A stretch of 64,000 nt of DNA from Rhodospirillaceae bacterium (GTDB taxonomy: Bacteria > Pseudomonadota > Alphaproteobacteria > Rhodospirillales > Casp-alpha2). Below are positions 27,245-59,636 of the stretch, one piece after another. The position numbers and the translations under genes were made by a program. Under the pieces are notes generated by a model, which was not told the origin of the DNA, ran no database searches, and saw nothing but the letters and a program-made list of their open reading frames with translations. Numbering within the stretch: the first letter of the stretch is position 1; each line of letters starts with the position of its first letter. Where the stretch lies: contig NZAZ01000114.1 in the NCBI GenBank assembly GCA_002686255.1, positions 1-64,000 of the forward strand, read 5' to 3'.

Positions 27245-27904
27245 GTGCGCGGGAAACGCGATCACCAGGGCCGGCGGTTGGGGTTCAATCTTGGCCTGGC
27301 GGGCGCGGCGGCGGCCGTCCTTTGGGTCGCCGGCCTGTTTCAATTCGCTTCCCTGGTGCCCAAACAGGTGGCCGACCCGTCCACCCGCACCGACGCCATC
27401 GTGGTGTTGACCGGCGGCAGCCGGCGCCTCGGCGAAGGCCTTGAACTGCTGTCCCGGGGCCTGGCCGAAAAATTGTTTGTGTCGGGAGTCTATCAGGGCG
27501 TCGACGTGCGCGAACTGTTACAGATCGTCAGGCGCAACCCGCGGGAACTGGAAACCCAGATCGGCATCGGCAACGCCACCAATACGGCCGAAAACGCCCT
27601 CGAGACCATGGCCTGGATGCGGGCCCGGGATTACCGTTCCCTGCGTCTGGTCACCGCCGCCTACCATATGCCCCGGAGCCTGTTGGAATTCCGCCACGCC
27701 ATGCCGGCCGTCACCCTGGTGGCGCATCCGGTGTTTCCCGAAAACGTCAAACAGGACCGCTGGTGGGCGTGGCCGGGCACGGGCAGCCTGATGATCGGCG
27801 AATACAACAAATTCCTGCTTGCTTGGTCGCGCCATTGGGCCGGGCGGATTCTCGAAAAAGCCAGTCCCGGTCCCGGCCGCCAAAACGCGTCCGCCAAATC
27901 CTGA
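27245..27904 (+). CDS. YdcF family protein (DUF218)
   Basis: A 219-residue DUF218 protein with one N-terminal membrane helix (about 15-35). The family motifs are AIVVLTGGSRRLGEGLELL, NATNTAENA and LVTAAYHMPRS. Relatives such as SanA/ElyC act in envelope or peptidoglycan precursor homeostasis. The start is GTG 27245, 3 bp after ftsX, so it belongs to the ftsEX operon. This gene order is common in alphaproteobacteria. Confidence 0.85.
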   Translation: MRGKRDHQGRRLGFNLGLAGAAAAVLWVAGLFQFASLVPKQVADPSTRTDAIVVLTGGSRRLGEGLELLSRGLAEKLFVSGVYQGVDVRELLQIVRRNPRELETQIGIGNATNTAENALETMAWMRARDYRSLRLVTAAYHMPRSLLEFRHAMPAVTLVAHPVFPENVKQDRWWAWPGTGSLMIGEYNKFLLAWSRHWAGRILEKASPGPGRQNASAKS

Positions 27905-27911
27905 TCCCGAC

Positions 27912-28667
27912 ATGACCGTAATCCGATCCGTTCTGTTCAATATATTCCTTCTGTTTTTTCACCTTTTCCTGGTGGTGGGGATGCTGGTGCTTCTGCCTTT
28001 CCCCCGGCCCTGGATGCAGACGGCGGTCCGCCTTTGGACCAACGTCATGGGGGCGGGGCTGAAGCTGATCATCGGCCTGGATATCGAGGTCCGCGGCCTC
28101 GAAAACCTGCCCCAGGGCGCCGCCGTCATCGCCTGCAAGCACCTGTCGGCCTGGGACACCTTCGTTTTTTACCGGCTGGCACGCGACCCCAACTATATCC
28201 TGAAGAAGGAGCTGATGGAGATGCCCGTTTGGGGCTGGCACGCGCGCAAATGCGGCGCCATTTCCGTCGACCGCGACGGCGGCGCCGGCGCCCTCAAGCA
28301 GATGGTGCGCGACGTCGAAGACCGGTTATCGAAGGACCGCCAGGTGATCATCTTTCCCGAAGGCACCCGCGCCGCGCCCGGAACCCGTCACCCCTACCTG
28401 CCGGGAATCGCCGCCGTCTATAACAAAACCAAGGCGCCGGTGGTGCCGGTGGCGTTGAATTCGGGGCTGTTCTGGGGCCGGCGCAGTTTCCACAAAAAAC
28501 CCGGCGTGATTACCATCGAGTTCTTGGAACCGATGCCCCAGGGCCTCGACCGCCGCCGGTTCATGGACGAACTGGAAAAGAGAATCGAGACCGCCACCGA
28601 TGCCCTGATCGCCGAGGCCCGCTCCCGTTTCCCCGATACCGTCGAAGACCCCGCCGGGCCTTCCTGA
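27912..28667 (+). CDS. plsC: 1-acyl-sn-glycerol-3-phosphate acyltransferase (PlsC family)
   Basis: Makes phosphatidic acid from lysophosphatidic acid at the membrane. It is 251 residues with an N-terminal membrane helix. The catalytic HxxxxD motif is CKHLSAWDTF and the substrate-binding motif is FPEGTRAAPG. ATG 27912 is chosen because it opens the hydrophobic helix; the frame upstream overlaps the YdcF gene. It is probably the last gene of the ftsEX transcript. Here the catalytic acid is Asp, unlike the fused enzyme at 52025. Confidence 0.9.
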   Translation: MTVIRSVLFNIFLLFFHLFLVVGMLVLLPFPRPWMQTAVRLWTNVMGAGLKLIIGLDIEVRGLENLPQGAAVIACKHLSAWDTFVFYRLARDPNYILKKELMEMPVWGWHARKCGAISVDRDGGAGALKQMVRDVEDRLSKDRQVIIFPEGTRAAPGTRHPYLPGIAAVYNKTKAPVVPVALNSGLFWGRRSFHKKPGVITIEFLEPMPQGLDRRRFMDELEKRIETATDALIAEARSRFPDTVEDPAGPS

Positions 28668-48237: not shown

Positions 48238-48705
<468 letters not shown>

Positions 48706-48708
48706 ACG

Positions 48709-49521
48709 GTGCAGGATTTCGAATACCAAAAGCCGAAAACCGTGGCCGCGGCCGGTGACGCCTTCGACGCCCAATCGGACGGCTCCTTCCTTGCCGGCGG
48801 GCAAACGCTGATCCCGGTGATGAAACAGGGCTTGGCCATGCCGTCGGGGCTCATCGACCTTTCCGGGATCGAGGACCTGCAAGGCATCACCGTTGCCGAT
48901 GGGTCCCTCTCCATCGGCGCCATGACGACCCATGCCCGGGTGGCGGCGTCGGAAGAGGTTCGCCGAGCGATTCCCGTCCTGGCCGGGCTGGCCGGCGGCA
49001 TCGGCGACCCGCAGGTGCGTAACCGGGGGACCCTCGGCGGCTCGCTGGCCAACAACGACCCTTCCGCCGATTACCCGGCCGCCGTGCTGGCCCTTTCGGC
49101 GGCGGTGATGACGGACAAGCGCCGCATCCCGGCGGACGGGTTCTTCACCGGCATGTTCGAAACCGCGCTCAACGAAGGGGAACTGATCACCGGCGTCGAG
49201 TTTCCGGTTGCCGAGCGCGCCGCCTATGCGAAGTTCGCCAACCCGGCGTCCCGGTACGCTGTGGCCGGGGTCTTCGTCGCCCGCGTTGACGGGGCGGTTC
49301 GCGTCGCCGTCACCGGCGCCGGGCCGGGGGTGTTCCGGGTTGCGGAAATGGAGGCCGCCCTGGACAAGGATTTCCGGGCCGAAGCCCTGAAGGGCATCGC
49401 CGTCACCGAGGCCGACCTGATTGCCGACATCCACGCCTCGGCCGGATACCGGGCCCATTTGATCGGCGTCATGGCCCGCCGCGCCGTTGACGCGGCCAAC
49501 GGGGAAGGGGGTGCGGCATGA
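48709..49521 (+). CDS. coxM: Molybdenum hydroxylase, FAD-binding medium subunit
   Basis: A 270-residue flavoprotein subunit of the CoxM/CutM type. It has the FAD pyrophosphate-binding motif [16 protein letters not shown] and the second FAD motif [18 protein letters not shown]. The start is GTG 48709, 3 bp after the small subunit stop. The stop overlaps the large subunit start (ATGA). It is shorter than CO dehydrogenase medium subunits by about 20 residues. Confidence 0.93.
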
Positions 49522-51884
49522 CCGACGTAGCCATCGGCCAACCGGTGAAACGGTCCGAGGACGAGCGGTTCCTCACCGGCCGTGGCCGGTACATCGACGA
49601 CATCAACCTGGAAGGCCAGGCCCGCGCCGCGGTGCTGCGCTCGGTCCATGCCCATGCCGACATCAAGAACATCGACGCATCCCAAGCGCTGGCCATGGAA
49701 GGCGTGCTTCTGGTGGTCACCGGCCAGGACTGGATCGCCGAGGGGTTCGGCCCGATGCCGACGAAAACGGCGGTGCGGAAGAACCGCGACGGATCGGAGC
49801 TGTCGGAACCGCCGCGCCATTGCCTGGCCATCGACCGGGTGCGCTACGTCGGCGAGCCGGTGGCCCTGGTGGTTGCCGAAACGGATCAGATCGCGCGGGA
49901 CGCCCTGGATCTCATCAACGTCGACTATGAGTCCCTGGACGCGGTCACCGACGCGGTCAAGGCGTTGACTCCGGACGCACCGCAACTGTGGGACGACATC
50001 CCGGGGAACCTGTGTATCGATTTCGAGCTCGGCGACCGGGAAGGGGTCGAAAAGGCCTTCGAGGAGGCCGACCACGTGATCACCCTCGACCTGGAAAACA
50101 ACCGCGTCACCGCGGTGCCGATCGAGCCCCGCGGCTGCGTCGGCGGCTACGACCCCGAGACCGAAACCTACCTGCTCTACAACGCCACCCAGAACGTCCA
50201 CGCCAACCGCGACACCTTCGCCGAGAACGTCTTCGGCATCGACAAGGAGAAAATTCACCACATCGCGCCGGACGTAGGCGGCGGCTTCGGGGTCAAGAAC
50301 AGCGCCTATCCGGAACCGCCCCTGGTGCTCTATGCGGCAAAAAAACTCGGCCGGCCGGTCAAGTGGATCAACAACCGCTCCGAAAGCTTCCTTTCCGACA
50401 CCCACGGCCGGGGACAGACCAGCCGCGTGCAGCTTGCCATCGACAACGACGGCACCTTCCGGGCGCTGCGTACGGAAACGGTTGCCGGCATCGGCGCCTA
50501 TTGCTGGACCATTGGGCCGTTTACGCCGACCGGCGGCTCGGCCCGGACACAGGGTGGACCTTATGACTTTCCGGTGATGTACTACCGCGGCCGCGCCGTT
50601 TTCATCAACACCGGGCCCATGGACCCCTATCGTGGCGCCGGGCGGCCGGAGGCGACGTTCCAGACCGAGCGCATCATCGAATACGCGGCGCGCCAGCTCG
50701 GCATGGACCCGGTCGAGATCAGGCGCAAGAATCTGATGCCGCCGGAAAAACTCCCCCATAAGACGTCCATGGGGCTGAACATCGATTGCGGCGATTTCCC
50801 CAAGGTGTTCGAGCGGACCCTGGAACTGGCCGATCCCGGGTCGTTTGCCGAAAGGGCCGAACAGTCCAAGACCGCCGGCCGCCTTTTCGGTTTCGCCATC
50901 GCTCCTTACCTGGAATGCACCGGCGGCGGGCCGAAGGAATTCGCCGGCGTCGCCTTTCGCGCCGACGGAACGGTATCGCTGTCGGTCGGCAGCCAGTCCA
51001 CGGGCATGGGCCACGAGACATCTATGGCGCAGTTGCTGGCGGCCCGTTTGGGGATTCCGTTCGAGCGCGTCGAATACCACCAGGCCGACACCGACAAGAC
51101 CCCCATCGGCGGCGGTCACGGCGGGTCCCGGGGGTTGGAACTGGGCGGCAACGCCGTCGCCCAGGCCGCCCAAGAGGTGATCGAAAAGGCGTCCGGGTTG
51201 GCGGCGCATCTATTGCAGTCGAAGGCCGCCGACCTGACCTTTGAGGGCGGTAGCTTCACGGATTCCGGTTCCGGCGCATCGGTGTCGATGGTTGAGGTTA
51301 TCGAGGCCTCCTTCGACCCCGAGCGCCTTCCCGACGACCTGGAGCCGGGGTGCCTGGATACGGGCTCGACCTTCGAAAGGGGCGAGATTTCGATCCCCAA
51401 CGGCTGTCACGCGGCGGCGGTGGAGGTCGATCCCGAGACCGGCGCCATCCGTCTTTTGGGGTATTGGGTGGTTGACGACTTCGGCACCATCATCAATCCG
51501 CTGCTCGCCGACGGACAGGTCATGGGCGGCGTCGCCCAGGGGATCGGGCAGGTCCTGACGGAGAACATCGTCTTTGACGAAAGCGGCCAATTGATCACCG
51601 GCTCGCTGATGGATTACGGGTTGCCGCGCGCCGATGCCGTCCCCGACATGGTCATCGAATACTATGAGGGGGCGCCGACGAAGAAAAACCCGCTTGGTGT
51701 TAAAGGCGCCGGCGAAGCCGGCTGCGTCGGCTCGCTGCCGGCGGTCGTCAACGCCGTCCTCGATGCGCTCAAGGAATTTGGCGTCGTCCACATCGACATC
51801 CCCCTGACGCCGGAGAAGGTGTGGCGCGCGATCCAGGACCAGGGCGCCCATGATCCAAAAGGATTGATGGAAAACGCCCTCTAA
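49518..51884 (+). CDS. Molybdenum hydroxylase large subunit, form II CoxL-like
   Basis: A 788-residue molybdopterin-binding subunit of the xanthine oxidase superfamily. It has GRYIDDINLEGQARAAVLRS and VGGGFGVKNSAYPEPPLV, which bind the cofactor. The active-site loop is PYRGAGR (370-376), the form II signature, not the AYxCSFR of true CO dehydrogenases. The catalytic Glu733 is in KGAGEAGCVG. It therefore probably hydroxylates an organic aldehyde or N-heterocycle; the substrate is unknown. Confidence 0.92.
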   Translation: MTDVAIGQPVKRSEDERFLTGRGRYIDDINLEGQARAAVLRSVHAHADIKNIDASQALAMEGVLLVVTGQDWIAEGFGPMPTKTAVRKNRDGSELSEPPRHCLAIDRVRYVGEPVALVVAETDQIARDALDLINVDYESLDAVTDAVKALTPDAPQLWDDIPGNLCIDFELGDREGVEKAFEEADHVITLDLENNRVTAVPIEPRGCVGGYDPETETYLLYNATQNVHANRDTFAENVFGIDKEKIHHIAPDVGGGFGVKNSAYPEPPLVLYAAKKLGRPVKWINNRSESFLSDTHGRGQTSRVQLAIDNDGTFRALRTETVAGIGAYCWTIGPFTPTGGSARTQGGPYDFPVMYYRGRAVFINTGPMDPYRGAGRPEATFQTERIIEYAARQLGMDPVEIRRKNLMPPEKLPHKTSMGLNIDCGDFPKVFERTLELADPGSFAERAEQSKTAGRLFGFAIAPYLECTGGGPKEFAGVAFRADGTVSLSVGSQSTGMGHETSMAQLLAARLGIPFERVEYHQADTDKTPIGGGHGGSRGLELGGNAVAQAAQEVIEKASGLAAHLLQSKAADLTFEGGSFTDSGSGASVSMVEVIEASFDPERLPDDLEPGCLDTGSTFERGEISIPNGCHAAAVEVDPETGAIRLLGYWVVDDFGTIINPLLADGQVMGGVAQGIGQVLTENIVFDESGQLITGSLMDYGLPRADAVPDMVIEYYEGAPTKKNPLGVKGAGEAGCVGSLPAVVNAVLDALKEFGVVHIDIPLTPEKVWRAIQDQGAHDPKGLMENAL

Positions 51885-52024: not shown

Positions 52025-54364
52025 ATGGACATTCGTCCCGCGCCGGAGATTAACGAAACCACTTATGAGTGGTGCGTCCGGGCGTTTTCGCTCTTGCATG
52101 ACCAGCTTGGAATCAACGTCAAGGTCCATGGCGCCGACGGCAAGCTCGAGGACGGGCAGATATTCCTGTTCAATCACTTCGCCCGCTTAGAAACGGTCAT
52201 TCCCCAATACATCATTCACGAGGCGACGGGCGGTTTCTGCCGTTGCGTCGCGGCGGGCGAATTGTTCGAAGGAAGCGACTCCTTTGCCAAGTTCCTGTGG
52301 GATGTCGGCGCGGTACCGACCGATTACCCGGGACTGCTTTCCTTTCTCACCGCCGAGATTCTCAGGGGCCGCAAAGTCATCGTTTTTCCCGAAGGCGGGA
52401 TGATCAAAGACCGCCAAGTCGTCGACAACAAAGGCGATTTCGAAATTTTTTCACCGGGGGATAAGGCCCAGCGCAAACTCCACAAGGGCGCCGCGGCGAT
52501 CGCGTTGACCCTTGAAATCTTCAAGAAGCGCATCCTCATGGTCCACGAAGCCGACGATGCGCCCCGGCTTCAGAGATGGGTCGAAGCCTTGGGGCTGGAC
52601 AGCGTCGAAACCCTCATCGCCGCGGCTCGTCAACGGACCCTGGTCGTGCCCGGCAACATCACTTTCTATCCGATCCGCAATGACGAAAACATTCTCAGCA
52701 AGGGCGCGGCGCTGTTCGGCGGCGAAATCGCGCGCGCGGCCCAGGAAGAGCTTTTGATCGAAGGCAACATCCTGTTCAAAAGCACGGACATGGACGTCCG
52801 CTTCGGCCGGCCGATTGCGCCGGGCGTTTCATGGAACTGGTGGGAGCGGGTGGTTTTGGAACGGGTGTTTCAGCGCATCGACAGCCTCCATGACCTGTTC
52901 GCCCTGAAACCGGATTCCGGACGCTGGATCGACCGCATGGTGTCCATGGTGCTGGGGCGCCAAACGCGGCTGCTTCGCGACGAATACACCCGCGAAATCT
53001 ACTTCAACGTCACCGTCAATCTGTGCCACCTGGCTTCGCGATTGATCCTGACCCTGCTTGAGCGGGGGACAACCGAAATCGGACACGAGCCCTTTCACAC
53101 GCTCCTTTATCTCAGCGTCAAGAACGCGCAACGGGAGCCTTCCATTCACCTGCATCGGAGCCTGGTCATCCCGGAAAGATACGACGGCATCCACAAGGGC
53201 GTCTGGAAGCGGTTCCAACAGTTTCTCGACATGGCGATCAAGTCGGAGTTGATCGAAATTACGCCGGACAAATACCGCTTTTTGCCGAAACTGCAGCAGG
53301 AACACGGCTTTCACGAAGTGCGATTGGAAAATACGGTATCCGTCTATGCTAACGAAATCGCCCCGGTAGAGGCCGCCTGCCGGGCCGTGGAGCAGGCAAT
53401 TCAGTCGAATTCGGCGGCCGAAAAAACGAACCTGGCCAGGCTGTTGTTCGACGACGAAATCCGCGCCTTCCGGTGGTGCCGGGGAAACTATTCCAAGCCG
53501 CGGCACGCCCACATCAACGATCAGGAAACGGCGACCAAAAACCCGGAGCCCTATCTTATGGTTCCCGAGAACGCCCGGGAAATCGGCGTCGTCCTGGTGC
53601 ACGGATTTCTCGCCTCCCCGGCCGAGCTCAGGTCCTATGGCGAGAAGCTGGCGGCCTTGGGGTATCCGGTCATCGGCGTCCGTCTTCGCGGCCACGGAAC
53701 GTCACCTTGGGACCTGCGCGACCGCAATTGGAAGGAATGGCTGGGTTCGGCACGCCGGGGGTTTGAGATCATTTCAGCCTTCGCCGACCATATATGCGTG
53801 GTTGGATTTTCCACCGGCGGCGCGCTGGCGCTCCGGCTCGCCGCCGAGCAACCGGAAAACCTTGCCGGCGTCGTGGCGGTTTCCGTCCCCGTCAAGTTCC
53901 GCAACCGCAACCTGATTTTCGTTTCCGTCATCCACGGCATCAACAAACTGACGAAGTGGGTGACGTCGCTGGAGGGGCTGATGCCGTTCCGTTCCAACGA
54001 ATCCGAACACCCTGACATCAATTACCGGCACATTCCCATGCGCGGACTGTTCGAGTTGCACCGGCTGGTCGACGACATGAAACAACGCCTGTCAGACGTC
54101 GCCTGCCCGGTCGCCGTGATCCAAGGAACGGAAGATCAAATCATCGATCCCAAAAGCGCCGAAATCGTCCTCGACAAGATCGCTTCGACGGATACATCGC
54201 TTCACATGATCCCGTCCAAGCGGCACGGCATCCTGAGCGAGGACATAGGCGGCACCCAGGAGCTGGTGACCTCATTCCTGATGTCGCTGTCGCCGGAGGA
54301 AGAAGACCCTTCCGCGGCGGAGCGGCCTGAGATGGAGCGGACCGGAGAAAGCGTATGCGGATAA
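52025..54364 (+). CDS. Fusion of PlsC-type acyltransferase and alpha/beta-hydrolase
   Basis: A 779-residue two-domain protein. The N-terminal part (about 40-330) is a glycerolipid acyltransferase: FNHFARLET at 49-57 supplies His51 with Glu56 in place of the usual Asp (HxxxxE), and FPEGGM at 121-126 is the acceptor motif. A linker of about 180 residues follows. The C-terminal part (about 518-755) is an alpha/beta-hydrolase with VLVHGFLAS (oxyanion), nucleophile Ser596 in GFSTGG, Asp704 and His734, like monoacylglycerol lipase. It could deacylate and reacylate the same lipid, feeding fatty acids to the fadD gene, whose start it overlaps. No signal peptide is seen. Confidence 0.85.
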   Translation: MDIRPAPEINETTYEWCVRAFSLLHDQLGINVKVHGADGKLEDGQIFLFNHFARLETVIPQYIIHEATGGFCRCVAAGELFEGSDSFAKFLWDVGAVPTDYPGLLSFLTAEILRGRKVIVFPEGGMIKDRQVVDNKGDFEIFSPGDKAQRKLHKGAAAIALTLEIFKKRILMVHEADDAPRLQRWVEALGLDSVETLIAAARQRTLVVPGNITFYPIRNDENILSKGAALFGGEIARAAQEELLIEGNILFKSTDMDVRFGRPIAPGVSWNWWERVVLERVFQRIDSLHDLFALKPDSGRWIDRMVSMVLGRQTRLLRDEYTREIYFNVTVNLCHLASRLILTLLERGTTEIGHEPFHTLLYLSVKNAQREPSIHLHRSLVIPERYDGIHKGVWKRFQQFLDMAIKSELIEITPDKYRFLPKLQQEHGFHEVRLENTVSVYANEIAPVEAACRAVEQAIQSNSAAEKTNLARLLFDDEIRAFRWCRGNYSKPRHAHINDQETATKNPEPYLMVPENAREIGVVLVHGFLASPAELRSYGEKLAALGYPVIGVRLRGHGTSPWDLRDRNWKEWLGSARRGFEIISAFADHICVVGFSTGGALALRLAAEQPENLAGVVAVSVPVKFRNRNLIFVSVIHGINKLTKWVTSLEGLMPFRSNESEHPDINYRHIPMRGLFELHRLVDDMKQRLSDVACPVAVIQGTEDQIIDPKSAEIVLDKIASTDTSLHMIPSKRHGILSEDIGGTQELVTSFLMSLSPEEEDPSAAERPEMERTGESVCG

Positions 54365-56148
54365 GCGGCAAAATTGGCCGCGTCCTTGAGGCGCTTGCCG
54401 GCCCCTTAAAGCGGCGGGGCGCGCCCCCGACATCCGAAACCGGCGGGGCCTTCCCATGGGAGAAGTCCTATCCGGCGGATATCGACTGGCGGGCCGACAT
54501 CACGCCCCGCCCCTTGCCGGATTTGCTCAACGAAGCGGCGGCGGCCTATGGCGATCAAACCTGCATCAGCTTCCGCGGCCGGCGCTTTCATTACCGGGAG
54601 GTCGCCGATCAGGTGAACCGCGCGGCCAAGGGGTTCCAGGCGCTCGGCGTCCACAAGGGGATCAAGGTCGGTTTGATGCTGCCGAACTGCCCTTATGCGG
54701 TGATCTGTTATTACGCGGTGCTCAAGGCCGGCGGCATCGTCGTCAACATCAATCCGCTTTACTCCGAAAGCGAAATCAAGAAGCAGGTTGCGGATTCGGG
54801 GCTTTGCATCCTGGTGACCCTGAACATGAAAGCCCTTTACCCCAAGGTGGCGCCGCTGCTGGCAACCAACGGGCGGCTGGAGACGGTTGTCGTTTGCTCC
54901 ATGGGCGGGGTTCTCCGGTTCCATGAAAAGGTCCTGTTCAAGCTTCTCAAGCGCCGGGAAATCGCCGACATACCCGAAGACAGCCGCCATTACTCCTTTG
55001 ACCGCCTGATCGACAACGACGGCGCCCCCGAACCCGTTTCCATCGACCCGAAAAACGACGTCGCGGTCTTCCAGTTCACTGGCGGCACCACCGGTTTTCC
55101 CAAGGCCGCGCGCCTGACGCATGCCAATCTTTACGCCAATGCGGCCCAAATCGCGCTCTGGGCCGCCGAGGTCAAGGCGGGCGAGGAGAAAATCCTCGGT
55201 GTGCTGCCGCTTTTCCATGCCTTCGGCATGACGGCGGTGATGAACTTAGGCGTAAGGATCGGGGCCGAGCTTATCCTGCTGCCGCATTTCAAAACCGCCG
55301 AGGTGCTTGAGGCCATCGAAAGCGAACGGCCGACTATCTTCATCGGCGTGCCGACGATGTATTCGGCGCTCAACGCCGTCCGCGACATCGACAGATACGA
55401 TATTTCAAGCCTCGAATTCTGCATTTCCGGCGGCGCGCCGTTGCCGACGGAAATTCAGCGCCGTTTCGAGGACATGACCGGTTGCACCCTGGTCGAGGGT
55501 TATGGTTTGAGCGAAACCAGCCCGGTCATCACCATCAATCCTTTTTCCGGCGACGGAAAACCGGGGTCCGTCGGGCTGCCGCTTCCGGGGACGGTGGTCA
55601 CCATCGTTTCCACGGACGACCCCGATAAGGTCCTGGCCGTCGGCGAAAGGGGCGAGGTCTGCGTCACCGGCCCCCAGGTCATGGTGGGTTATGCCAACCG
55701 GGCGAGGGACAATATGGAAATCTTCCAAGGCGGCCACCTGCACACCGGGGATGTCGGATACCTGGACAAAGACGGTTACCTTTTTATTGTCGACAGGATC
55801 AAGGATCTGATCCTGAACGGCGGTTTCAACGTCTACCCGCGCATGGTCGAGGAAGCGATCTACCTTCACCCGGCGGTGGAGGAAGCCGCCGTTTGCGGGG
55901 TGCCGGACCAGCACCGCGGCGAAACCATCAAGGCCTTCGTCAAGCTGAAACAGGGAGAAGAGGTTTCGGCGGCGGAACTGCGCGCCTTTCTCAAGGATAA
56001 GCTGGCGCCGTTCCAAATGCCCCGGCAGATCGAATTTTGCGAGACCCTGCCGAAGACGTTGATCGGCAAGATTTCGAAGAAAGACCTGCTTGCGGAGGAG
56101 GCGGCCGCGCCAAAGGAAACCAAGACCGTTTCCACCGCCGGAGAATGA
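54355..56148 (+). CDS. fadD: Long-chain fatty acid--CoA ligase
   Basis: Activates fatty acids to acyl-CoA with ATP. It is 597 residues. The AMP-binding P-loop motif FTGGTTGFPKAA is near 241-252, EGYGLSETSP near 381, GDVGYLDKDGYLFIVDR near 465, and the catalytic Lys lies near the C-terminus in TLIGKISKKD. ATG 54355 overlaps the end of the fusion gene by 10 bp, so the two are translationally linked. It is second in the five-gene operon. Confidence 0.94.
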   Translation: MRISGKIGRVLEALAGPLKRRGAPPTSETGGAFPWEKSYPADIDWRADITPRPLPDLLNEAAAAYGDQTCISFRGRRFHYREVADQVNRAAKGFQALGVHKGIKVGLMLPNCPYAVICYYAVLKAGGIVVNINPLYSESEIKKQVADSGLCILVTLNMKALYPKVAPLLATNGRLETVVVCSMGGVLRFHEKVLFKLLKRREIADIPEDSRHYSFDRLIDNDGAPEPVSIDPKNDVAVFQFTGGTTGFPKAARLTHANLYANAAQIALWAAEVKAGEEKILGVLPLFHAFGMTAVMNLGVRIGAELILLPHFKTAEVLEAIESERPTIFIGVPTMYSALNAVRDIDRYDISSLEFCISGGAPLPTEIQRRFEDMTGCTLVEGYGLSETSPVITINPFSGDGKPGSVGLPLPGTVVTIVSTDDPDKVLAVGERGEVCVTGPQVMVGYANRARDNMEIFQGGHLHTGDVGYLDKDGYLFIVDRIKDLILNGGFNVYPRMVEEAIYLHPAVEEAAVCGVPDQHRGETIKAFVKLKQGEEVSAAELRAFLKDKLAPFQMPRQIEFCETLPKTLIGKISKKDLLAEEAAAPKETKTVSTAGE

Positions 56149-56172
56149 AGGCCTTTAACGGAGGATTTGAGA

Positions 56173-57312
56173 ATGAAAAACGTCGTCATCGCCGGATACG
56201 TCCGGTCCCCCTTTACCTTCGCTGGAAAGGGCGCATTGAAAAAAAAGCGCCCTGACGAACTGGCGGCCGAGGTCATCAAGGGGTTGATCGGCAAGATGGG
56301 CGTCAAGGCCGAGGACATCGAGGACCTCATCCTGGGCTGCGCCTTCCCGGAGGCCGAGCAAGGGCTGAACTTGGCGCGGCTGGTGACGTTTCTGGCCGAA
56401 TTGCCGTTGAGCGTCGCCGGGGTCACCGTCAACCGGTTCTGCGGATCGTCCATGTACGCTATCCACATGGCCGCCGGCGCCATCCAGATGAACGCCGGCG
56501 AGGTATTTATCTGCGCCGGGGTCGAATCCATGACCCGGGTGCCGATCATGGGCTACAACCCGATGCCTCATCCGGGCCTCGCCGAAAGGTTCCCGCAGGC
56601 CTACATCCCCATGGGCGAAACGGCGGAAAACGTCGCCACCAAGTATCAGATCACCCGCGAGGCGCAGGAAGCCTTCGCCGTCCAATCCCATGCCAAGGCG
56701 GCGGCGGCCCAGGCGGCGGGTAAGCTCGACGACGAAATCATCCCCATCAAAAGCAACGGCGCCGTGGTCGATGCCGACGGCTGCATCCGGCCCGAAACGA
56801 CGGCGGAGGGGCTGTCGGAACTGAAGCCGGCGTTCGACGAGAACGGCACGGTCACCGCCGGCACCTCGTCGCCGTTGACCGACGGCGCGGCGGCGACGTT
56901 GGTCTGCAGCGAAGACTACGCGGAAAGAACCGGTCTTCGACCGCTGGCCCGGATCAAGAGCATCGCCGTCGCCGGATGCGCGCCGGAAATCATGGGCATC
57001 GGGCCGGTGCCGGCTTCAAGGAAGGCGCTAGAGAGGGCGGGGCTTTCCATTGCCGACATCGATCTTGCCGAGGTCAACGAAGCCTTTGCCTCGCAAAGCC
57101 TGGCCTGCCTGCGCGACCTGGACCTGGACGCGGACCGGGTCAACCTGGACGGCGGCGCCATCGCCCTTGGCCATCCGCTGGGCGCCACCGGCGCGCGCAT
57201 CACCGGCAAGGCGGCGGCGTTGCTCGGCCGCGAAGGCGGCACCTATGCGCTTTCGACCCAGTGCATCGGCGGCGGTCAGGGAATCGCCACGATCCTTGAG
57301 GCGACGAAGTGA
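56173..57312 (+). CDS. fadA: Acetyl-CoA acyltransferase (thiolase)
   Basis: Cleaves 3-ketoacyl-CoA with CoA in the last step of beta-oxidation. It is 379 residues. The nucleophile is Cys90 (NRFCGSS), His334 is in ALGHPLGATGAR and Cys364 in TQCIGGGQG. ATG 56173 is chosen because GGAGG lies 8 bases upstream. The stop overlaps the GTG of the next gene (GTGA), which encodes its likely partner subunit. Confidence 0.94.
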   Translation: MKNVVIAGYVRSPFTFAGKGALKKKRPDELAAEVIKGLIGKMGVKAEDIEDLILGCAFPEAEQGLNLARLVTFLAELPLSVAGVTVNRFCGSSMYAIHMAAGAIQMNAGEVFICAGVESMTRVPIMGYNPMPHPGLAERFPQAYIPMGETAENVATKYQITREAQEAFAVQSHAKAAAAQAAGKLDDEIIPIKSNGAVVDADGCIRPETTAEGLSELKPAFDENGTVTAGTSSPLTDGAAATLVCSEDYAERTGLRPLARIKSIAVAGCAPEIMGIGPVPASRKALERAGLSIADIDLAEVNEAFASQSLACLRDLDLDADRVNLDGGAIALGHPLGATGARITGKAAALLGREGGTYALSTQCIGGGQGIATILEATK

Positions 57313-59636
57313 CTGAGATCAAAAAAGCCGCCGTTTTCGGCGCCGGCGTCATGGGCGCCGGGATCGCCGCCCAAATCGCCAATGCCGGCATGCCGGTGGT
57401 GCTGCTCGATATCGCCGCCGAGGACGGCGACAACCGGAGCGCCATCGCCGAAGGGGCGGTGGAAAAGCTGCTCAAGACCGACCCGGCGCCGTTGATGCAC
57501 AAACTGGGCGCCCATTTGATCACCACCGGCAACATCGACGACGACATGGCCCTGATTGCCGATTGCGACTGGATCGTCGAGGCGATCATCGAACGGCTCG
57601 ACCTCAAACAGGGCCTTTACAAAAAAATACAAGCCGCCCGCAAGCCGGGCTCTATCGTGTCGTCGAACACCTCGACCATTCCCCTTGCCCGGCTGATCGA
57701 GGGCATGCCCGGGGATTTCCAATCCGACTTCCTGATCACCCATTTCTTCAACCCGCCAAGGTATCTCAGGCTTCTGGAGATGGTGGCCGGCGAACGCACC
57801 CGCGCCCACGCCGTCAACACGATCCGCCGGTTCGCCGATTTCAGGCTCGGCAAGACCATCGTTCCGTGCAAGGACACGCCGGGCTTCATCGCCAACCGGA
57901 TCGGTATCTATTGGCTGCAATGTGGTGTCGTCCATGCCATGGACGAGGGGCTTTCGATCGAAGAAGCCGATGCGGTCATGGGCCGCCCGGCGGGAATTCC
58001 CAAAACCGGCGTGTTCGGTCTTCTCGACATGGTCGGCCTCGACCTGATGCCGCACGTGCTCGGCAGCATGGCCGAGGCGCTGCCCGAACAGGATCCCTTC
58101 CATGAGGTGTTCCGCGAACCCGAACTGATCAAACGGATGATCGGCGACGGCTATGCGGGCCGCAAGGGCAAGGGCGGCTTTTACCGGCTCAAGCCGGAGG
58201 CCGAGGAAAAGATCAAGGAGGCGATCGACCTTGAAACCGGCGAATACAGCACGGCCCAAAAACCGAAATTGAAAAGCGTCGCCAAGGCCAAGAAAGGCGG
58301 CCTCAAGGCGATGTTGGAGCACGGCGACAAGACCGCCAATTACGCCTGGTGGGTGCTGGCCCGCACCTTGGGCTACGCGGCCCGGTTGGTGCCTGAAATT
58401 TCCGATGATATCGTCGGCGTCGATGACGCCATGCGCCTCGGCTACAACTGGAAATTCGGACCGTTCGAGCTCATCGACCAGTTGGGGACCGGCTGGTTCG
58501 CCGAACGGCTGCGGGCCGACGGCCTGCCGGTACCGAAGCTTTTGGAAATGGCCGACGGGCGGCCCTTTTACCGCACCGAAAACGGCCGCCTTCGGTTCCT
58601 CGGCACCGAGGGCGAATACCATGACGTCATACGCCCCGAAGGCGTGCTTATGCTGGCCGATATCAAGCGCCGCCGGAAACCGCTGGCGAAAAACCTCTCG
58701 GCCAGCCTGTGGAACATCGGCGACGGCGTGCTGTGCCTGGAATTCCACAGCAAGATGAATTCCCTCAACCCGTTTATCCTGTCGATGATCGAAACGGCCA
58801 TCGACCTGGTGCCGAAGGGATATCGGGGGTTGGTGATCTACAACGAAGCCTCCAACTTCTCCGTCGGCGCCAACATCGGCCTGTTGCTGATCGCCATGAA
58901 ACTCAGGGCGTGGTTCGCCGTCCGTTACCTGGTCCGCCGCGGGCAAAACGTCTACAAAGCCCTGAAACACGCGCCTTTCCCAGTGGTCGGCGCGCCTGCC
59001 GGCATGGCGCTCGGCGGCGGCTGCGAGATCCTCCTTCATTGCGACGCCGTGCAAGCCCACGCCGAGACCTACACCGGCCTCGTCGAGGTCGGCGTCGGCG
59101 TCGTCCCCGGGTGGGGCGGGTGCAAGGAAATGCTGCTCCGGTGGTCCAACACCCCCGACCGGCGGGGTGGGCCGATGCCGCCGGTAATCAAGGTATTCGA
59201 GATCATCGGCATGGCGGCGGTGGCGAAATCGGCGGTCGAAGCTCGGGACCTTCTGATCCTGCGCCCCGAAGACGGAATCACCATGAACCGCGACCGCCTG
59301 CTGGCCGACGCCAAGGCCAAGGTCCTGGCCCTAGCCGAGGGTTACGGCGCCCCCGAGGCGCGGGAAATTCCGCTGCCGGGCAAAACCGCCCTGACGGCGA
59401 TGTCGATGGCGGTTGACGGGTTCCGCCTCAGCGGTAAGGCTGCCCCCCATGACGTGACCGTGGGCAAGGCCTTGGCCGGGGTGTTGAGCGGCGGCGACAC
59501 GGACATCACCGAAACCTTGGGCGAGGACGACCTGCTGGTTCTGGAACGGGACGCCTTCGTCGCCTTGTCCCGGAACCCGGCCAGCATCGCCCGCGTATCG
59601 CAGATGCTGAAAACCGGCAAACCCTTGCGCAATTGA
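57309..59636 (+). CDS. Bifunctional 3-hydroxyacyl-CoA dehydrogenase / enoyl-CoA hydratase
   Basis: A 775-residue beta-oxidation enzyme. Unlike E. coli FadB, the dehydrogenase comes first: Rossmann motif AAVFGAGVMGAGIAAQ, then SSNTSTIPLARL, FFNPPRYLRLLE and a second dehydrogenase C-terminal domain. The hydratase follows (about 470-700), with both catalytic Glu residues in GGGCEILLH and GLVEVGVGVVPGWGG. This order occurs in many alphaproteobacterial and actinobacterial long-chain enzymes. The start is GTG 57309, overlapping the thiolase gene. Confidence 0.93.
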   Translation: MTEIKKAAVFGAGVMGAGIAAQIANAGMPVVLLDIAAEDGDNRSAIAEGAVEKLLKTDPAPLMHKLGAHLITTGNIDDDMALIADCDWIVEAIIERLDLKQGLYKKIQAARKPGSIVSSNTSTIPLARLIEGMPGDFQSDFLITHFFNPPRYLRLLEMVAGERTRAHAVNTIRRFADFRLGKTIVPCKDTPGFIANRIGIYWLQCGVVHAMDEGLSIEEADAVMGRPAGIPKTGVFGLLDMVGLDLMPHVLGSMAEALPEQDPFHEVFREPELIKRMIGDGYAGRKGKGGFYRLKPEAEEKIKEAIDLETGEYSTAQKPKLKSVAKAKKGGLKAMLEHGDKTANYAWWVLARTLGYAARLVPEISDDIVGVDDAMRLGYNWKFGPFELIDQLGTGWFAERLRADGLPVPKLLEMADGRPFYRTENGRLRFLGTEGEYHDVIRPEGVLMLADIKRRRKPLAKNLSASLWNIGDGVLCLEFHSKMNSLNPFILSMIETAIDLVPKGYRGLVIYNEASNFSVGANIGLLLIAMKLRAWFAVRYLVRRGQNVYKALKHAPFPVVGAPAGMALGGGCEILLHCDAVQAHAETYTGLVEVGVGVVPGWGGCKEMLLRWSNTPDRRGGPMPPVIKVFEIIGMAAVAKSAVEARDLLILRPEDGITMNRDRLLADAKAKVLALAEGYGAPEAREIPLPGKTALTAMSMAVDGFRLSGKAAPHDVTVGKALAGVLSGGDTDITETLGEDDLLVLERDAFVALSRNPASIARVSQMLKTGKPLRN

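What the first reader, a model, noticed from the sequence alone, without database searches (positions are those of the whole stretch)
52025..54364. Acyltransferase-hydrolase fusion heading a beta-oxidation operon
One polypeptide joins a PlsC-type acyltransferase, with HxxxxE instead of HxxxxD, to an alpha/beta-hydrolase with an intact Ser596-Asp704-His734 triad. It overlaps fadD and is followed by thiolase, hydratase/dehydrogenase and acyl-CoA dehydrogenase genes. Inference: the hydrolase releases a fatty acid for FadD and beta-oxidation, while the acyltransferase restores or traps the lysolipid, giving a self-contained lipid-remodelling or storage-lipid mobilising enzyme. The Glu substitution may mean altered or lost transferase activity. 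I know of no characterised protein with this architecture.
Basis: partly seen in the sequence, partly recalled or inferred. Interest (0 to 1): 0.75.

Follow-up and report, generated by a model that had tools for sequence, protein, structure and literature searches.

The report
Fused lipid-recycling enzyme heading fat-burning operon
This is a real and widespread bacterial protein that joins a glycerolipid-acyltransferase-like half to a monoacylglycerol-lipase-like half, is often tied to (and in some species physically fused with) the enzyme that activates fatty acids for burning, and whose function is still untested.

Summary
ORF 52025-54364 (779 aa) has a weak PF01553 acyltransferase match, HFARLE at 51-56, and a hydrolase with Ser596/Asp704/His734; it overlaps fadD by 10 nt and heads fadD-fadA-fadB-fadE. 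The linkage is not unique: in a class-wide draw, 8 of 11 fetched loci have fadA downstream. In at least 11 genomes the gene and fadD form one open frame (1317-1409 codons), with three junction types. The Glu is not decay: H51, R54 and E56 are invariant in 73 of 73 aligned homologues, and HX4E acyltransferases (LpxL, LpxM) are active. The N-terminal half is GPAT1-like by predicted fold (Z 19.2, 321 residues), without significant sequence similarity to PlsB and without its motif II arginine. The hydrolase resembles bacterial monoacylglycerol lipase (Z 32.3). Kiloniella and Novispirillum forms have Ala or Gly for the nucleophile but keep the acyltransferase motif. Best reading: a lipid-salvage enzyme that frees a fatty acid from a monoacyl lipid, passes it to FadD, and can return acyl-CoA to a lipid acceptor. 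Substrates are untested; most gammaproteobacterial copies lack the linkage. New variant of a known kind.

The parts
52025..54364 (+). whole gene 'TF': GPAT1-like acyltransferase half fused to monoacylglycerol-lipase-like hydrolase, 779 aa
   Evidence: predicted structure pLDDT 86.6, pTM 0.86
52025..52894 (+). acyltransferase core (about residues 1-290)
   Evidence: PF01553 at 32-137; PlsC 5kym Z 13.1, squash GPAT 1iuq Z 11.3
52175..52192 (+). motif I HFARLE (H51...E56); H51, R54, E56 invariant in 73 of 73 aligned
52385..52402 (+). motif III FPEGGM (121-126); P122, E123, G124 invariant in 73 of 73 aligned
52895..53539 (+). second helical, winged-helix-like part (about residues 291-505)
   Evidence: secondary structure; GPAT1 alignment reaches residue 449
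53540..54298 (+). alpha/beta hydrolase domain (about residues 506-758), monoacylglycerol-lipase-like
   Evidence: PF12146; Geobacillus and Bacillus MGL Z 32.3
53810..53812 (+). nucleophile Ser596 (GFSTG); Ser in 69 of 73 aligned, Ala 3, Gly 1
54134..54136 (+). acid Asp704; Asp in 71 of 73 aligned, Glu in 2
54224..54226 (+). base His734; His in 73 of 73 aligned
54355..56148 (+). fadD, acyl-CoA ligase, overlapping the TF stop by 10 nt
   Evidence: PF00501 303.4 bits, PF13193 77.4 bits; junction printed
56167..57312 (+). fadA, thiolase
   Evidence: PF00108, PF02803; TIGR01930 above cut-off
57309..59636 (+). fadB-type 3-hydroxyacyl-CoA dehydrogenase / enoyl-CoA hydratase
   Evidence: PF02737, PF00725, PF00378
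59650..62070 (+). fadE, acyl-CoA dehydrogenase
   Evidence: PF09317 335 bits; NF007000 1085.7 bits, cut-off 600

Best explanation
A multi-domain lipid-salvage enzyme, probably soluble or membrane-peripheral. SHOWN by sequence and structure prediction: a GPAT1-like acyltransferase half with an invariant H-x4-E site, a monoacylglycerol-lipase-like hydrolase, close spacing, overlap or outright fusion with a FadD-type acyl-CoA ligase gene in many genomes, and a following beta-oxidation set. INFERRED: the hydrolase cleaves the acyl ester of a monoacyl lipid (monoacylglycerol or lysophospholipid), the fatty acid is passed locally to FadD, and the acyl-CoA goes either into beta-oxidation (FadE, FadB, FadA) or, through the acyltransferase half, back onto a lipid acceptor that is probably not glycerol-3-phosphate. 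It would act as a branch point between burning a scavenged acyl chain and re-esterifying it, comparable in logic to E. coli Aas (ligase plus acyltransferase for lysolipid recycling) with a deacylating domain added.
For: Domains and triad. H51, R54, E56 and P122-E123-G124 invariant in 73 of 73 aligned (two pairs of rows are the same records or nearly so), and NHFAR-x-E in 80 of 80 genome-contig loci. N-half predicted alone (pLDDT 82.5, pTM 0.83) matches human GPAT1 best: Foldseek E 1.5e-8 over 488 columns, Z 19.2, rmsd 3.6 over 321 residues against 13.1 for the next row. Hydrolase matches MGL, Z 32.3, rmsd 2.2, 26% identity over 245 residues. Of 58 genome-contig loci with at least 4 kb downstream, 24 have fadD adjacent, 26 have fadA and 27 have either; in the class-wide draw 8 of 11 fetched loci have fadA downstream. 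One-frame TF-FadD in 9 of 80 genome-contig loci plus G360 and G270, ligase domain confirmed by Pfam in one. 'Fused' needs 5 changes on the tree, at least 4 forced by starred branches, with three junction types read by eye. Where the genes are separate, 6 of 22 listed loci have a 4-nt overlap, taking the first start codon of the fadD frame. Co-occurrence with the FadB orthologue in 61 genomes: 13 TF, 16 FadB, 11 both, Fisher p 6.7e-7, not corrected for kinship. PlsY is present in the genome, so this need not be its primary GPAT. LpxL and LpxM use HX4E and need the Glu (PMC6286764, passages).
Against: No substrate is shown for either domain. Most gammaproteobacterial copies lack the beta-oxidation link: 19 of 20 judgeable. 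Three class-draw loci (L167, L170, L172) have fadA, fadB and fadE but no fadD match in the fetched stretch, so FadD pairing is not obligatory. In Kiloniella, a related Rhodospirillales genome and Novispirillum the nucleophile is Ala or Gly, so ordinary serine hydrolysis cannot be the essential step there. The MGL glycerol-binding Glu156 aligns with D664, acidic in only 41 of 73, so a monoacylglycerol headgroup is not assured. PF01553 is weak: one fused homologue (L012) shows no PF01553 match at E <= 0.001 and L016 scores 22.4, below the cut-off. Profile-profile comparison with PlsB is not significant (probability 0.4%), so GPAT likeness rests on predicted structure. FadB-type loci without a TF hit exist in G040, G049 and G058.
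Confidence: 0.42

Rival explanations
1. Aas-like re-acylation enzyme: the real job is anabolic salvage, in which FadD makes acyl-CoA and the acyltransferase half re-acylates lysolipids; the hydrolase is an accessory editing or acyl-binding domain.
For: The acyltransferase core has the most near-invariant columns (48 of 290 against 27 of 255 in the hydrolase). The nucleophile is lost in Kiloniella and Novispirillum while motif I stays, and fadD remains adjacent in the five Kiloniella-type loci with Ala or Gly (L081, L086, L087, L100, L104). Hydrolase dN/dS in four Ser-to-Ala pairs (dS 0.9-1.6, near saturation) is 0.02-0.07, so the altered domain is still under purifying selection.
Against: 69 of 73 keep Ser596 and 73 of 73 keep His734, so hydrolysis is normally retained. 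Linkage is to the fadA-fadB-fadE set, which is catabolic.
Confidence: 0.3
2. The hydrolase is a thioesterase or esterase acting on acyl-CoA or beta-oxidation intermediates, a safety valve that frees CoA, and the acyltransferase half is a substrate-binding platform.
For: Linkage to fadA, fadB and fadE even without a fadD match in L167, L170, L172.
Against: The closest solved relatives listed are monoacylglycerol lipases, lipases and carboxylesterases; an invariant H-x4-E site is not expected of a mere platform.
Confidence: 0.12
3. The N-terminal half is a catalytically dead scaffold and the protein is simply a lipase.
For: Asp of HX4D replaced by Glu; motif II lacks the PlsB FFxRR arginines in the (not significant) profile alignment.
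Against: Invariant H51, R54, E56, P122-E123-G124, NHFAR-x-E in 80 of 80 loci, and in the four Ser-to-Ala pairs the acyltransferase core has the lowest dN/dS, 0.01-0.02; LpxL and LpxM use HX4E.
Confidence: 0.1

Closest known systems
Human GPAT1 / bacterial PlsB glycerol-3-phosphate acyltransferases
   Same: Predicted fold of the N-half including part of the second helical domain (Z 19.2 over 321 residues); the profile alignment with PlsB, though not significant, sets the motif blocks in order, HFARLE against HRSHMD and FPEGG against FVEGG
   Different: Glu for Asp in motif I, no motif II arginine (GAVPN-like against GAFFIRR), profile comparison probability 0.4%, fused to a hydrolase; the window's genome gave no hit to E. 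coli PlsB at E <= 1e-20 and has PlsY
Bacterial monoacylglycerol lipase (Bacillus sp. H257, Geobacillus sp. 12AMOR)
   Same: Fold and triad; Z 32.3, 26% identity over 245 residues; phmmer E 9.4e-27
   Different: Carried on an acyltransferase-like half; glycerol-binding Glu156 not conserved across the family
E. coli Aas (acyltransferase / acyl-ACP synthetase)
   Same: Couples fatty-acid activation and acyltransfer in one chain, as the FadD-fused forms would (PMC13170283, abstract and passages)
   Different: No hydrolase; hhalign gives only a 28-column motif III match, probability 13.9; its E. coli neighbours in the stretch viewed are lplT and others, not fad genes
Plant and algal phytyl ester synthases (PES)
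   Same: Hydrolase fold plus acyltransferase-type acceptor pocket in one protein (PMC12526585, passages)
   Different: Hydrolase first or central, acyltransferase part at the C-terminus; chloroplast proteins
LpxL / LpxM lipid A acyltransferases
   Same: HX4E catalytic motif (PMC6286764, passages); LpxM Z 8.5
   Different: Enzymes of lipid A without a hydrolase domain (recalled)

Membership tests
PlsC/LPLAT acyltransferase superfamily (PF01553) | Match above the curated cut-off | tested here: met
   24.7 bits, cut-off 23, a bare pass; relatives vary: L009 24.7, L016 22.4, L012 no match at E <= 0.001
PlsC/LPLAT acyltransferase superfamily (PF01553) | HX4D motif in the strict form | tested here: not met
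   HX4E in 73 of 73 aligned; HX4E is a working variant in LpxL/LpxM
PlsC/LPLAT acyltransferase superfamily (PF01553) | Acyltransferase fold | tested here: met
   PlsC 5kym Z 13.1, squash GPAT 11.3, PatA 10.3, LpxM 8.5, on a predicted model
PlsB/GPAT1 glycerol-3-phosphate acyltransferase | Two-part fold | tested here: met
   GPAT1 8e4y Z 19.2, 321 residues, model residues 1-449, on a predicted model
PlsB/GPAT1 glycerol-3-phosphate acyltransferase | Motif II arginines of PlsB (FFxRR) | tested here: not met
   Family has G-A-V-P-(N/H/T) at the aligned place, though the aligning comparison is itself not significant
PlsB/GPAT1 glycerol-3-phosphate acyltransferase | Significant sequence-profile match | tested here: not met
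   hhalign probability 0.4%
Monoacylglycerol lipase family | Ser-Asp-His triad and MGL fold | tested here: met
Monoacylglycerol lipase family | Cap glutamate binding glycerol (Glu156) | tested here: inconclusive
   Aligned D664 is acidic in 41 of 73 (29 D, 12 E)
Monoacylglycerol lipase family | Hydrolysis of monoacylglycerol | not testable with these tools
   -
Aas | PlsC-type domain joined directly to an AMP-binding ligase, no hydrolase | tested here: not met
   hydrolase lies between in the fused forms read; in the window the ligase is a separate gene
Aas | Bound ACP / acyl-ACP formation | not testable with these tools
   -
Phytyl ester synthase | Hydrolase before the acyltransferase | tested here: not met
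   opposite order; PES layout from PMC12526585, passages

The most novel reading that the evidence does not exclude
A single-chain lipid-recycling machine: in the FadD-fused lineages one polypeptide deacylates a monoacyl lipid, activates the released fatty acid and re-esterifies it or hands it to beta-oxidation, a deacylation-activation-reacylation cycle in one protein that sets the split between burning and re-using acyl chains.
Probability: 0.3. Interest if true: 0.78.

Novelty: new variant of a known kind. Interest (0 to 1): 0.6.

Why it matters
If right, it gives a function to an unassigned family found across many Pseudomonadota (507 encoding stretches at E <= 1e-3 in one genome collection, best 80 inspected) and gives bacteria a dedicated branch point between oxidising and re-esterifying scavenged acyl chains, a choice in which GPAT1 takes part in animals (recalled). 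It also offers natural variants for dissecting the function: fused, unfused, unlinked and nucleophile-less forms. An active HX4E site in a GPAT1-like fold would extend what is known of acyltransferase catalysis beyond LpxL and LpxM.

Tried and rejected
Reading Glu56 as decay: rejected by its invariance. Reading the linkage as local: rejected. Membrane-anchor reading: no 19-residue window above 1.39 on the Kyte-Doolittle scale. Stand-alone N-half: sought with the N-half profile in 398 genomes of the phylum; the 5 matching genomes all have open frames of at least 743 aa, and the distant one that I read (G582, 740 aa) still shows NHFTRME and GFSAG. Direct sequence proof of GPAT kinship: single PlsB, a 16-row PlsB profile and PDB sequences gave nothing significant. 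WS/DGAT in the own genome: no hit, but nothing rang in the controls either, so uninformative. Plasmid records: no match at E <= 1e-20. Other genes shared by at least 3 linked loci (ORFs of 120 aa or more): none beyond the fad genes except groups confined to the five Kiloniella-type loci. Unlinked gammaproteobacterial loci have varied neighbours. In the VIA list a chain of a complex I assembly intermediate (7zkq_T, Z 13.0) ties with PlsC; not followed. Literature: looked for this architecture and for HX4E acyltransferases, for phytyl ester synthases; nothing matched, two and six unrelated-looking papers, I saw 8 of 108. No paper describing this architecture was seen, but subscription papers are not held, so this is weak evidence of absence. 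No NCBIfam family passes its cut-off for the window protein.

Rows dropped: A2 holds the window, 60 of the 80 genome-contig loci and 12 class-search loci. Left out were L097 (stops in the match stretch) and L032, L036, L040, L053, L057, L060, L061, L063, L066, L070, L075, L087, L093, L094, L098, L100, L102, L104, L109 (near copies, partial, or to limit size). L033/L113 and L085/L118 are the same records or nearly so, so 73 rows are about 71 distinct ones. The motif I count covers all 80 loci; the nucleophile pattern there failed on 7 of 80, of which L084, L088, L096, L103 and L110 show Ser in A2, L036 lacks the stretch and L097 was dropped. Ten of 73 tree rows carried no state label.
Full report
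OBSERVATION. The ORF at 52025-54364 codes for 779 aa. Pfam places an acyltransferase match at 32-137 (24.7 bits, cut-off 23) and Hydrolase_4 at 522-739 (82.1 bits). fadD begins 10 nt before the end of the gene; fadA, fadB and fadE follow on the same strand, with gaps of at most 18 nt, and their domains are as named.

DISTRIBUTION. Among 61 genomes of relatives including the own one, 13 have a match at E <= 1e-20, 6 of 10 in the window's genus; many are incomplete MAGs, and G004, counted as lacking it, has the tail of a copy at a contig start. In an even draw of the class, 17 of 385 genomes including the own one; with the N-half profile in the phylum, 5 of 398 including the own one. A scan of genome contigs found 507 stretches encoding relatives at tblastn E <= 1e-3; only the best 80 were kept and seen: Alpha- and Gammaproteobacteria, a few Betaproteobacteria, and MAGs labelled Acidobacteriota, Polarisedimenticolia or Nitrospinota. 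Named isolates include Kiloniella, Sedimenticola, Terasakiella and Novispirillum.

OPERON LINKAGE. Among the 80 loci, 31 have fadD adjacent, 32 have fadA within 5 kb and 35 have either. Among the 58 with at least 4 kb downstream: 24, 26 and 27. Of 47 loci with at least 7.7 kb downstream, 19 have all four fad genes, 2 have fadA, fadB and fadE without fadD, and 24 have none. Alphaproteobacteria: 20 of 24 judgeable loci have fadD or fadA. Gammaproteobacteria: 1 of 20 (L099), with two short Methylococcaceae contigs (L072, L077) showing an adjacent, more distant fadD of 33-36% identity. The 80 were chosen by similarity; the class draw was not, and there 8 of 11 fetched loci have fadA downstream (L161, L166-L172), L160 has only the fused fadD, L162 none, and L165 is a 4.3-kb contig. 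Five further class hits (G265, G334, G365, G410, G427) were not fetched with wide flanks. So the linkage is old and repeated in Alphaproteobacteria but not universal.

FUSION. In nine of 80 loci (L035, L047, L067, L069, L073, L074, L075, L079, L082) the open frame runs to 1317-1408 codons and includes the FadD match; two class genomes, G360 (one contig, 98% complete) and G270, do the same with 1402 and 1409. Of the five fused relatives found first (G005, G007, G011, G018, G024), four are the same records as L069, L067, L082 and L075; G005 is a further one whose start is cut by the contig end. Pfam on the G007 form (L012) shows Hydrolase_4 at 520-742 and AMP-binding at 783-1170, and no PF01553 match at E <= 0.001, although it aligns with the window protein throughout. 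The start of a G004 contig also reads, by eye, from the end of the hydrolase into FadD. Junctions are of three kinds by eye: a long linker with the FadD N-terminus kept (L035, L160, L161), a short linker with it kept (L047, L073, L074, L079), and a trimmed FadD N-terminus (L067, L069, L075, L082). On a 73-row tree the fused state needs 5 changes, at least 4 forced by starred branches; changes may be gains or losses. Where the genes are separate, 6 of 22 listed loci show a 4-nt overlap when the first start codon of the fadD frame is taken. Co-occurrence with the FadB orthologue (E <= 1e-150) in 61 genomes: 13 TF, 16 FadB, 11 both, Fisher p 6.7e-7, not corrected for kinship. Of the five FadB genomes without a TF hit, G004 carries a TF tail, G048's contig starts inside fadD so it cannot be judged, and G040, G049 and G058 show none.

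THE N-TERMINAL HALF. In 73 aligned homologues (35-67% identical to the window protein; about 71 distinct records) N50, H51, F52, R54 and E56 are invariant, as are P122, E123, G124, P209 and P216; NHFAR-x-E is found in 80 of 80 genome-contig loci. The half predicted alone (pLDDT 82.5, pTM 0.83) matches human GPAT1 first (Foldseek E 1.5e-8, 488 columns, TM 0.44 by query length; VIA Z 19.2, rmsd 3.6 over 321 residues, model 1-449), above PlsC (13.1), a complex I assembly-intermediate chain (13.0), squash GPAT (11.3), PatA (10.3) and LpxM (8.5). The match to GPAT1 reaches into the second helical part, whose winged-helix-like stretch alone resembles ORC and CRP/FNR-type domains at Z about 5-6. Sequence comparison with PlsB is not significant (probability 0.4%) although its alignment sets the four motif blocks in order; in it the motif II arginines are missing. 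I therefore call it GPAT1-like and do not file it as a GPAT; the missing arginines suggest an acceptor other than glycerol-3-phosphate (inference). The Glu is a known working variant: alanine mutants of H132 and E137 of LpxL lose 1000- and 3000-fold activity, and E127 of LpxM is critical (PMC6286764, passages).

THE HYDROLASE. Best solved relatives are Geobacillus and Bacillus monoacylglycerol lipases (phmmer E 9.4e-27; Z 32.3, 26% identity). Ser596 is kept in 69 of 73, Asp704 in 71 (Glu in 2), His734 in 73. The glycerol-binding Glu156 of the Bacillus enzyme (PMC3829422, abstract and passages) aligns with Asp664, acidic in 41 of 73, so the headgroup is open. In four pairs of the Ala forms (dS 0.9-1.6, near saturation) the hydrolase dN/dS is 0.02-0.07 and the acyltransferase core 0.01-0.02, so the altered domain is still selected. 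Two more pairs were too far apart for a ratio. This suggests, but does not prove, that the hydrolase is the more dispensable activity.

MECHANISM. Most likely (0.42): monoacyl-lipid hydrolysis, local hand-over of the fatty acid to FadD, then oxidation or re-esterification. Shown: architecture, conservation, linkage, fusion, predicted folds. Inferred: substrates, direction, channelling. The Aas-like rival (0.3) explains the nucleophile-less forms better; the two differ mainly in whether hydrolysis is the main or an accessory step. PlsY in the genome argues against a housekeeping GPAT role.

KNOWN AND NEW. The pieces are known. The combination, with repeated fusion to FadD, was not met in five searches for it in an open-access library (of one search's 108 papers 8 were listed), which is a limited test. 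Phytyl ester synthases combine similar domains in the other order (PMC12526585, passages). I rate it a new variant of a known kind, the multifunctional lipid-salvage enzymes exemplified by Aas (PMC13170283, abstract and passages).

Noticed in passing
L031:11904-14792 (-), contig C24 of the window's genome: A 963-aa ORF that reads as carrier protein, AMP-binding ligase and PlsC-type acyltransferase in one chain: PF01553 hit over cut-off and a distant FadD match. The carrier-protein reading is by eye.
   Followed up: partly
L081, L086, L087, L100, L104, L107, L123: The hydrolase nucleophile is Ala or Gly while motif I is kept; in the four pairs of Ala forms measured the domain stays under purifying selection. 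Natural forms that probably cannot hydrolyse.
   Followed up: partly
48238-51884: Molybdenum hydroxylase genes (2Fe-2S and FAD subunits by eye; MoCoBD domains by Pfam) end 140 bp upstream; the large subunit is also upstream in L020.
   Followed up: no
L142 (G058:C80:58852-61161): The FadB orthologue lies in a 1098-aa open frame, longer than the others listed (up to 845), possibly another fusion.
   Followed up: no
57309-59636: FadB has the dehydrogenase first (6-293) and the hydratase last (473-605), in line with the NCBIfam Staph_FadB model that matches end to end (below its cut-off); E. coli FadB has the reverse order.
   Followed up: no
L111: A MAG contig titled Klebsiella pneumoniae carries a copy that groups with uncultured Gammaproteobacteria; probably a mislabelled bin.
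   Followed up: no
L089, L092, L093, L094, L098, L101: In Sedimenticola-type loci the gene follows a 646-679-aa ORF on the same strand with 26-27% identity to FadD, acetyl-CoA synthetase-like by eye.
   Followed up: no
27819-28664: A separate PlsC-type acyltransferase with an ordinary FPEGTR motif lies in the same window.
   Followed up: no
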